Assembly: GCF_040954835.1 (NCBI RefSeq)
Contig: NC_090706.1
Span: forward strand, 38,015,148-38,079,147
Direction of reading: 5' to 3'
DNA length: 64,000 nucleotides
Source of the DNA: Lepisosteus oculatus
Lineage: Eukaryota > Chordata > Actinopteri > Semionotiformes > Lepisosteidae
Within the stretch, counting starts at the first letter, position 1, and the number at the start of each line of letters is the position of its first letter. This document shows, one piece after another, positions 17,301 to 20,300 of this stretch. Under the pieces are notes generated by a model that was not told the DNA's origin, made no database searches, and worked only from the letters and a program-made list of their open reading frames with translations. The position numbers and the translations under genes are program-made.

Positions 17301-20300
17301 ATCAGCATAACTCTCAACGTGATGTTTCCACCCTTGTCTTTCATCAGGTCTGTCGAGGGCAAGACAAAACCCTCCACCAGTTTCTCTGCTGTCACATCAG
17401 ATGTTCTCTGGTCCACGGAAGAAGGTGTTTGTTTCGATTAAGTGTCAATATATATTATCCATGTCCGAGCATGCAGGTGAACCTCTGTCATTCTTTAACT
17501 TAAGTCTGGCTTGATGTTTAATGCTCATGTGCAGAATATTGTAAAAACATTATTCTTCCATCTCAGAAACATCTCGAGACTGCAACCTCTGTTGTCTTTG
17601 ACAGTTGCAGAAGGGCTGGTCAACACATTTGTTTTTTATAGAAATGATTTCTGCCACACCCTGCTCACTCGAGTAACTAAATCCACACTGAACAAACACC
17701 ACTATATTCAGAATTGAGCAGAGAGAATCTAGACTAGGCCGTGTGCAAGCAATCACATTATTCCTGTTCCCGAGTCCTTGCACTTCATAAACTTCTGAAA
17801 CTTCCTAACCGGTTCCTAACAATCCTCATGCTCACCTGGCTTTACCTGACTTGGCACCTCAGCACTGTCTGACTTATTATCTGTCTTCTTCCCACCTCGC
17901 AGCCTTCAATCATCTGACTCTGGTCTAGGTGTCCCTCAAGATCGTTTACATTCTACGGATGACAGACAGAACCTTCTCTCGCTACACCCCAGAGCTCTGG
18001 AATTCTATACCCAAAGATATCAGACAGTCACCTACCCTGATTGCATTTCGAGACTTAAAACCTTTCTCTTCTGAAAGCCTTTTACTTAATTAATGTCTGT
18101 GCATGCTCCATTCTCTAACTAGTACTGCACCTCTAATCAATTGTCTTTCTTATATGTACTTACTTTGTAATTCACTATTCAGTGTAAATTTATACGTTAC
18201 AGCACACCTACTGTCAAGAGCTTTTAAATGCTACTTTTAAAGACGTATTCCATGCTGAAAAGAGAAGAAAAGAAACACAACGTTTTGACTGTGGAGCCTT
18301 CTTCGGGTGTCACACCTGATGAAGGCTCCACAGCCTAAATGTTGTGTTTTTTTTCTTCTCTTTTCAGCACAGAATAAACCTTTACTTGTTACTTTGCAGC
18401 CTGCACATGCTGATGCAGCTACCTACTTGAACTACTTTTAAATACGCCATAAAAATGAAGTTATTGTTGTAGCAACTTTAGCAGTGATTTTATGAAATCA
18501 CAGGGCTGCATCTTTGTTTTGTCATCCAAATGAACAGCACAAGTCAAAAACATAGGAAACACATCTTCTCAGCGTTTAAAGTGTAAATAATATTATATAT
18601 GTAGACAATGACCTACTGACGTGAACCTAGACTTTTGTATTTTTATTGTGCATCATAACACAAGCTTAATTAATTTAGCACTGAAAAAAGAAAAATCAGC
18701 ATTAGAAAGAATAAACAAGGAAAGCTCATCATCTTCTTTTAAGTGATATCCCATTAATAATTGGGGTTTTCTATAATTAAAAAAAACAGCTGGGATCCTC
18801 ACTCACCAGTGTCATTAAAATGCCATTTAGCGTGATGTGAAGTGTGACTAAACCAATGAAGAACTGGAGAGTCAAATTGTGCTGCATCAATTGGAACATT
18901 AGCTTTATGTGAGGTTAGGGAGTAAAAATCCTCTAAACCAGCACACTGTGCAAATGGTACAATGGTGGTGGATGAGTAAAAACATCCAAATTATTCATTG
19001 ACTGGTCTGAGTTCCTAGTGTGTGATAAAAAGAGTTTTATATGAGTGAATTGTTGCTCTTGTTTTAACTCAAAGGAAAAATAAGCATGAATGGCACAGTG
19101 ATGCAGTGTTCAGCACTGCTGTCTTAGAGTAGTGCTGGGGCCCTGGGCCTGATTCTTGGGGTGCTACCTGTGTGGAGCTTGTTTCTCCCTGTGTTCATGT
19201 GGGCTTACTCCAGGTGCTGCAGTTTTCTCTCACTGTCCAAAGACATACTGATAGGTTAATTAGCTTCTGAAAAGGCTGACCATGGTGTGAGTGTGTGTGT
19301 TTGGGTCTTTGCCTGTGTGTGCTCTGCGATGGACTCATGTCCTGTCTACTGCGTACCCTGCCTTGCACCCGTTGCTTGCTGGGACAGACTCCAGCTCCCC
19401 AGTGACCCTGAATTGGAAGAAGTGGTCAGAAAACGGATGGATGGAATAAAGAGTATGATCATGAATATTGAGAACAACATGATCATGCTACATTCAGGGC
19501 TTAAAAATGAAGTTAACCTGAGAACATGTTTTTAGTCTTTATAGAACTGGATTCCCATGCAATTTGATTAAACAAGCCAAATAGAAAAAGTTGAAAGGCT
19601 ACCTTATCCTGGCCAAAGCGTCTCAGCAGCTGGTAAGGCCAGTAGTACACTACTTCTTTTGTCTGAGGATCAAGCAGGGTGATAGCTTCTCCATCAAGAG
19701 CCAGAAGATAAGTCCCTGTGAGACAACACCTCGCCGATGCCTCAGTCTTCTGAACAGTTACTTCATACTCCTGATCTGTGTGAAAAGCAGGACTGGGTTA
19801 GTGCATCAAAGAGGCCAAACGTAAAACCAAACGACAGAAAAAAATCAATATAAATAAAAATGAGTGCTTAAACAGAAGGAATTACCCATCATGCAGCACT
19901 TCCAAGCCAATTCATTGACGTGGGTCACTGGATCCAGCATCACTGCTAATCCAGTGCAATGATTGTCAATGAAAGAAATGAAGAGCAGGTCGCTAACCAG
20001 CGACTCAGATGATACCTGACAGGACTGGCCTTCCATTTTTTTGTTTCCTATATACTATTAGCATGATTAGCATTTAGCTATGCTCTATTTTGGGTCTTCC
20101 GTCTCTTTCTCCTTTAATTGTGAGGGAAGGTTTGGGAGGGATGTGGGAAGGGCACTAGGAATCTCAGATATTCTCAGATAAAACACTGCACTAACAATGT
20201 ACATGTTCTTTAATATTGCTTCAATATAGAAATTATGCATCACACATTTTTGTTGGTTTTGAAAAACAATAAATATAAGTGAACTGGAAGGCTCACAGAA

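What the first reader, a model, noticed from the sequence alone, without database searches (positions are those of the whole stretch)
18254..18368. Palindromic element built from two opposed hammerhead-like ribozyme units (copy A)
Each arm contains, in order, a CUGANGA-type box, a GGC/GCC stem II, a (G)AAA box and an A-C/U-G-U-U end. The bases just before the first box (CACA) pair with the bases just after the cleavage position (UGUG). That is type I hammerhead architecture with a stem III of only two base pairs and no loop, so a single unit could work only as a dimer. The plus unit has an intact CUGAUGA but UAAA for GAAA; the minus unit has CCGAAGA. Penelope-like retroelements are known to carry such hammerheads. 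A head-to-head pair inside a 115-bp palindrome is an odd arrangement.
Basis: partly seen in the sequence, partly recalled or inferred. Interest (0 to 1): 0.72.

Follow-up and report, generated by a model that had tools for sequence, protein, structure and literature searches.

The report
Penelope retrotransposon scars with decayed ribozymes
The palindrome is one of very many short scars left by a Penelope-like jumping element in this animal genome; it carries two decayed copies of that element's known hammerhead-ribozyme motif, and the head-to-head layout is a known by-product of how such elements insert.

Summary
The palindrome is real and larger than stated: arms 18238-18384, inserted element 18246-18431, between 15-bp target-site duplications (one mismatch). 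Similar palindromes lie on many chromosomes of this 1.2-Gb genome. The 126-nt unit behind them is the pseudo-LTR of a Penelope-like element (PLE): five loci carry linked ORF pieces, one recognisably reverse transcriptase. The hammerhead resemblance is by descent: PLEs carry minimal hammerheads without helix III, and a second PLE family here has an intact core. In copy A both units are broken (UAAA and AAAA for GAAA; CC for CU in one). The ancestral box is probably CCGAAGA, not CUGANGA; CUGA copies look mostly like CpG decay. Palindrome centres vary between copies, so copies arose independently. Best reading: both cut target strands prime cDNAs that run to the RNA 5' end and join head to head. 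Exactly one arm carries the 3' tail in 37 of 40 palindromes (23 of 23 in the set not chosen by tail, but 1 of 3 in the window), as described for inverted pLTRs of PLEs. New member of a known kind, modest interest. More surprising, in passing: another PLE family here sits in telomeric repeats.

The parts
18246..18431 (+). whole inserted element (copy A): inverted arm plus direct arm with tail, 186 bp
   Evidence: direct repeat of the flanks and unit alignment
18231..18245 (.). left target-site duplication CTACTTTTAAAGACG
   Evidence: shuffled-flank control
18432..18446 (.). right target-site duplication CTACTTTTAAATACG
18246..18310 (-). inverted arm without tail, unit columns 2-66
   Evidence: the blast match runs on to 18238, which lies inside the duplication
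18311..18431 (+). direct arm, unit columns 1-121; columns 83-121 (18393-18431) are the tail
18311..18348 (+). hammerhead-like plus unit: CTGATGA 18316-18322, helix II 18324-18327/18332-18335, TAAA 18336-18339 in place of GAAA, predicted cut after 18343; G12 lost
18274..18310 (-). hammerhead-like minus unit: CCGAAGA 18306-18300 (U4 is C), AAAA 18286-18283 in place of GAAA (G12 lost)
52316..52484 (.). copy B of the palindrome; neither arm has the tail and no clear duplication
41400..41516 (-). single arm with tail, box CAGAAGA
45574..45634 (+). old degraded single arm, 75% identity
47904..48068 (.). old degraded palindrome, arms 75% and 81% to the unit, no tail

Best explanation
Copy A is a very short insertion of a Penelope-like retrotransposon. 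Shown: the unit is linked to PLE ORF pieces in some loci; most sampled palindromes have target-site duplications, variable inner ends and exactly one tail-bearing arm. Inferred: the element's RNA starts at or near unit column 1, just upstream of the hammerhead motif; the PLE enzyme cuts both target strands; each 3' end primes cDNA at one of two internal start sites about 40 nt apart (about column 125, giving an arm with tail, or column 82-89, giving an arm without); both cDNAs often run to the RNA 5' end and are joined there. This makes a head-to-head palindrome whose centre lies next to the hammerhead motif. The hammerhead sequence is an inherited part of the PLE pLTR. In this copy, and probably in the family, it is not expected to cleave efficiently.
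For: PLE link: L069 carries, next to the unit, a frame matching the reverse transcriptase of the genome's other PLE (51% over 39 aa, E 1.7e-5 in a small local set); L068, L069, L072, L078 and L088 hold pieces linked to one another by DNA matches, lying between or beside units; L068 shows inverted pLTR, direct pLTR, ORF piece, direct pLTR. Duplications: 25 of 40 distinct palindromes score 9 or more against 0.25% of shuffled flanks (26 of 41 rows, copy A counted twice). Exactly one arm with tail: 37 of 40, of which 23 of 23 in the set found with copy A, whose query holds no tail; if each arm chose independently, 23 of 23 has a chance of at most 1.2e-7 (0.5 to the 23rd; counts). Inner ends: 73 of 108 arms stop at columns 1-6; 23 of 54 in the tail-selected set. 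Junctions differ between copies. Literature: a PLE protein cleaves and extends both strands and starts at two internal sites (PMC11167929); inverted pLTRs with the tail on one of them (PMC3846280).
Against: I found no full-length copy of this family; the search for one did not complete. No GIY-YIG domain is tied to this family's own ORF. Of the three window palindromes, the only ones not picked by a search, just copy A has one tail; 52316-52484 and 47904-48068 have none; L068 has two. The other 14 of 15 one-tail palindromes were fetched by a tail query, so they carry less weight. Arms of one insertion share more rare variants than shuffled pairs (11 against 2.6, none of 5000 shuffles reached 11), which also fits a single self-primed molecule. 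The in-vitro study saw no difference in start site between the strands, which does not predict a one-tail rule. 15 of 40 palindromes show no convincing duplication.
Confidence: 0.88

Rival explanations
1. The palindrome arises by self-priming: an antisense PLE RNA folds back at its 3' end and primes its own copying, so both arms come from one molecule (the model preferred for rotifer Penelope elements).
For: Proposed in PMC3846280. Arms of one insertion share variants beyond chance (22 against 6.7, 8 of the 22 being one subfamily variant; 11 against 2.6 for rare ones).
Against: Some centres are lopsided (inner columns such as 2 and 41, 3 and 23, 15 and 29), which a fold-back at a local palindrome does not predict; mean arm-to-arm identity within an insertion (0.887) is barely above that between insertions (0.871). 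The sharing also fits two RNAs from one source locus or later arm-to-arm conversion.
Confidence: 0.3
2. An active hammerhead pair: the palindrome is itself a functional double ribozyme.
For: Stems I and II are kept and differ between the two PLE families by three two-sided changes. A natural U4C viroid hammerhead keeps enough activity in vivo (PMC3088659 passage).
Against: Both units of copy A lack G12; none of the five units at 18238, 41400 and 52316 has an intact core; the hairpin fold competes; a transcript has only one sense unit.
Confidence: 0.03
3. A foldback DNA transposon (MITE) moved by a transposase.
For: Short, very numerous and palindromic.
Against: Duplications of variable length, asymmetric outer ends, variable inner truncations, single-arm copies with duplications (L086, L087, by eye) and attached PLE ORF pieces.
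Confidence: 0.02

Closest known systems
Penelope-like elements with inverted pLTRs (Pen2a and others of Adineta vaga, PMC3846280)
   Same: Inverted pLTR joined to a direct pLTR, the inverted one shorter, optional 31-bp tail on one of them, 8-10-bp target duplications, palindromes at the junction
   Different: Here most sampled copies are reduced to the two pLTR pieces alone, in very high number
Poseidon of Anolis carolinensis (PAc, PMC11167929)
   Same: Hammerhead motif (stems I and II, loop II) at the pLTR-ORF junction; reverse transcription starts internally at two nearby sites, 111-118 nt into the ORF; tail lies between them
   Different: PAc has a hammerhead that cleaves when its protein is added; this family's ancestral core is probably CCGAAGA
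Minimal hammerheads of PLEs (reviewed in PMC6155905)
   Same: Hammerhead motif lacking helix III, carried in the PLE LTR
   Different: Core base U4 is C in the probable ancestral sequence here; G12 lost in both units of copy A
Animal retrozymes (PMC7229834)
   Same: Type I hammerheads that work better as dimers in vertebrates
   Different: Retrozymes are direct tandem repeats of about 300 bp; these are head-to-head insertions

Membership tests
Penelope-like elements | PLE reverse transcriptase ORF | tested here: met
   L069 insert 51% over 39 aa to the RT of the tandem PLE, E 1.7e-5; linked ORF pieces in five loci. Only broken pieces seen; that the RT motifs are those of PLEs is recalled, Pfam matched only GIY-YIG in the tandem PLE
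Penelope-like elements | GIY-YIG endonuclease in the same ORF | tested here: inconclusive
   Present in the other PLE family of this genome; not found attached to this family, search for longer copies unanswered
Penelope-like elements | direct and inverted pLTRs, with optional tail on one | tested here: met
   37 of 40 palindromes with exactly one tail, 2 with none, 1 with two; L068 and L072 with direct pLTRs around an ORF piece
Penelope-like elements | target-site duplications of variable length | tested here: met
   25 of 40 above control
Hammerhead ribozyme (type I) | CUGANGA and GAAA core | tested here: not met
   Copy A: UAAA and AAAA; probable ancestral box CCGAAGA; 10 of 66 non-window units formally intact
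Hammerhead ribozyme (type I) | stems I and II supported by covariation | tested here: inconclusive
   95.8% of cells paired, three pairs with two-sided change, but 24 of 500 shuffles do as well and only six sequences from two families were used
Hammerhead ribozyme (type I) | match to an Rfam hammerhead model | tested here: not met
   None listed at E 5 in the window and 4 loci or at E 10 in 20 loci; the formally intact hammerhead of the tandem PLE was not listed either (L049 and L038), so the models may miss this minimal form
Hammerhead ribozyme (type I) | self-cleavage | not testable with these tools
   needs an in-vitro assay
Retrozyme | direct tandem repeats bounded by hammerheads | tested here: not met
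   In the loci units are opposed or single, apart from L068, L070 and L072, which have same-strand pieces

The most novel reading that the evidence does not exclude
The rule that one arm carries the tail and the other does not (23 of 23 in the set not chosen by tail, 37 of 40 in all) means that in living cells the two target strands are primed at two different RNA sites. First- and second-strand priming by a PLE would then be distinct steps, unlike what the in-vitro system shows, and the palindrome centre would mark the 5' end of uncleaved template RNA. (Odds lowered from 0.35 to 0.3 on checking: the control holds only for the 23, and the unselected window palindromes follow the rule in 1 of 3.)
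Probability: 0.3. Interest if true: 0.5.

Novelty: new member of a known kind. Interest (0 to 1): 0.32.

Why it matters
A genome with very many tiny, independently made PLE insertions is a natural experiment on how PLEs integrate, a step that biochemistry has only begun to resolve. [quoted passage not shown] It also suggests a hammerhead whose core had already changed in the family's ancestor, which would speak against a strict need for self-cleavage in retrotransposition.

Tried and rejected
Rfam scans listed no hammerhead; the miRNA-family hits on the palindromes are hairpin matches below their gathering scores. The idea that a start codon sits at A6-N7-G8 as in Poseidon was dropped: the paper puts C3 and G8 before the ATG, and the ancestral box here has no ATG (note corrected). 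A peak of arm ends at the predicted cleavage site (columns 34-36) was looked for: 5 of 54 in the tail-selected set, one of them an unrelated old fragment, too few to claim. The first structure string was two columns off and was replaced. An unbiased copy count was planned but not possible. A protein comparison of the tandem PLE with solved structures gave nothing.

Duplicate rows dropped: L005, L015, L016, L020 and L021 repeat other loci; copy A appears as window and L001 and is counted once where 40 is given (the CpG and first sharing counts and the 41 rows hold it twice). Arms shorter than 26 columns were left out of the 108, and palindromes needed both arms over 30 nt with a gap of at most 30, so some complex loci (for instance L066, L070, L071, L078, L082, L088) are not among the 40. 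The older units at 45574 and 47904-48068 were not scored for the ribozyme core.

Full report
What is there. The inverted repeat is 147 bp (arms 18238-18310 and 18312-18384, 85% complementary). The right arm goes on to 18431, and the stretch 18231-18245 is repeated at 18432-18446 with one mismatch. So the inserted unit is 18246-18431, 186 bp, between 15-bp target-site duplications.

It is a repeat family. The window lies in an assembly of 1.2 Gb. The 147-bp query gave 3412 first-look candidates, of which only 40 were scored; these gave 80 matches, because each place matches on both strands. The window alone has five places: palindromes at 18238, 47904 and 52316, single arms at 41400 and 45574. 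The flanks of the 53 loci used (about 160 kb) add three (L007, L026, L069), and with looser scoring a weaker fourth in L003. That suggests some tens of thousands of copies, a rough guess from few counts.

The unit. Copies share a 126-nt unit beginning CACACCCGAAGAAGGCTCCACAGCCGAAACGTTGTG and ending in a tail of about 40 nt. In 37 of 40 distinct palindromes exactly one arm reaches the tail end (column 112-126; 30 of 37 at 124-126) and the other ends at columns 54-91 (27 of 37 at 82-89). The exceptions are two window palindromes with no tail and L068 with two. In the 23 palindromes found with the copy A query (copy A among them), which holds unit columns up to 74 of both arms and so does not select for the tail, it is 23 of 23; if each arm chose its end independently the chance is at most 0.5 to the 23rd, 1.2e-7. 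The 15 others from loci were fetched by a tail query, so their 14 of 15 is weaker evidence, and the binomial over all 40 printed is not a fair control. The three window palindromes, chosen by no search, follow the rule in 1 of 3.

Independent insertions. The inner ends differ between copies. 25 of 40 have both ends at columns 1-6, 8 have one, 7 have none; over all arms 73 of 108 end at columns 1-6, and 23 of 54 in the set chosen by the tail. Duplications of the flanks score 9 or more in 25 of 40 against 0.25% of shuffled flanks (corrected for copy A being listed twice). Single-arm insertions with duplications also occur (L086, L087; read by eye).

The element behind it. Five of the 53 loci carry coding pieces between or beside units (L068, L069, L072, L078, L088); the pieces are linked to one another by DNA matches, the link between the two groups being 39 nt at 87%. 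The L069 piece matches the reverse transcriptase of another PLE family in this genome, 51% over 39 residues, E 1.7e-5 in a small local set. That other family has 795-809-aa frames with a GIY-YIG domain in tandem arrays. L068 reads inverted pLTR, direct pLTR, ORF piece, direct pLTR, a miniature of the layout described for Pen2a in PMC3846280 (passages and Discussion read). I did not find a full-length copy of this family; that search did not complete.

The hammerhead. The unit has stem I (columns 2-5 with 34-37) and stem II (14-17 with 22-25), both in the predicted fold of the consensus, a helix III of two pairs without a loop, and the cut site GUU. The isolated 50-nt hammerhead of the tandem PLE is predicted to fold otherwise. 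Between this family and the tandem PLE three pairs change on both sides, though with six sequences 24 of 500 shuffles do as well. PLE hammerheads are known to be minimal and to lack helix III (PMC6155905, passages). But the first box is most likely CCGAAGA in origin: in the tail-selected set the two variable bases read CA 9, CG 8, TG 4, TA 2 of 23; in the palindrome-selected set TG 19, CG 14, CA 9, others 4 of 46. CG decaying to TG and CA explains this; a TG origin does not explain CG and CA. TG units are no younger than CA units by the state of other CpG sites (45% and 47% intact). Against this, TG is the commonest state in the palindrome-selected set, so a minor CTGA lineage is not excluded. 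A U4C change considerably lowers activity in vitro but is tolerated by a viroid (PMC3088659, passage). In copy A both units also lack G12, the general base (PMC6155905, passage). Ten of 66 non-window units have a formally intact core, and none of the five units at 18238, 41400 and 52316 (read).

How it most likely works. A purified PLE protein cleaves and extends both strands of its target, starting inside the RNA at two nearby sites, and the tail is the sequence between them; cleavage by its hammerhead is not needed in vitro (PMC11167929, parts 1 and 2 of 4 read). If both cDNAs run to the RNA 5' end near column 1 and are joined there, the result is what is seen: a palindrome centred just upstream of the hammerhead motif, one arm with tail and one without, between target duplications. 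The one-tail rule goes beyond the in-vitro result, in which the two strands did not differ. The rival, self-priming on an antisense template (PMC3846280), remains possible: arms of one insertion share 11 rare variants against 2.6 expected, which may equally reflect a common source locus.

Verdict. The arrangement is in print (PMC3846280, listed); in the listings of those searches and I saw no title or abstract start on such pLTR-only palindromes in vast number, and I read only passages or parts of a few of the papers.

Noticed in passing
L030, L031, L036, L037, L040, L045-L048 (contigs C627, C337, C412, C456) and arrays on C18, C283: A second PLE family with a GIY-YIG ORF sits in and beside telomeric repeats. 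In these 9 of the 30 fetched GIY-YIG loci, copies with variable 5' ends end at L049:1884-1891 (CTACCCTAAC) followed by (CCCTAA)n; full copies carry CTACCCTAAC internally. Among the places I checked against contig length (39 of 150), + copies lie near contig starts (C18, C283, C337, C412, C456) and - copies near the end of C627; arrays on C28 and C4 and single copies on C1, C3, C11, C16 do not. It looks as if the G-rich overhang primes reverse transcription on the element's own CCCUAAC. In PMC3846280 the telomere-associated PLEs are called endonuclease-deficient; a search for Penelope-like, telomeric repeats and GIY-YIG listed six papers, of which I read only parts of PMC3846280. Worth its own study.
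   Followed up: partly
L038 and L039 (C18, about 75-86 kb): An 890-bp tandem array made of L049:1374-2263 has its junction exactly at the predicted hammerhead cut site (after GUC at L049:2263), without microhomology. One event, but it suggests that hammerhead cleavage made the template's 3' end.
   Followed up: partly
unit columns 36-57; window 18346-18367: A pyrimidine tract ending in CAG resembles a 3' splice site, followed by AATAAA; the unit consensus is open in one frame. PLE introns near the 5' end are recalled, not tested.
   Followed up: no
window 35874-35992: 5S rRNA-like sequence above the Rfam gathering score (46.5 bits, E 1.6e-6), perhaps a pseudogene or a 5S-derived SINE.
   Followed up: no
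window 10869-11735 and 39109-39513: Open frames that look like an Atoh-type bHLH factor and a Tc1-type transposase (names recalled from the residues, not searched).
   Followed up: no
L003:474-593 and L029:779-833: Older relatives of the unit (65.6% identity over columns 1-122 in L003; tail part 76% in L029), so the family seems to have a long history in this genome.
   Followed up: no
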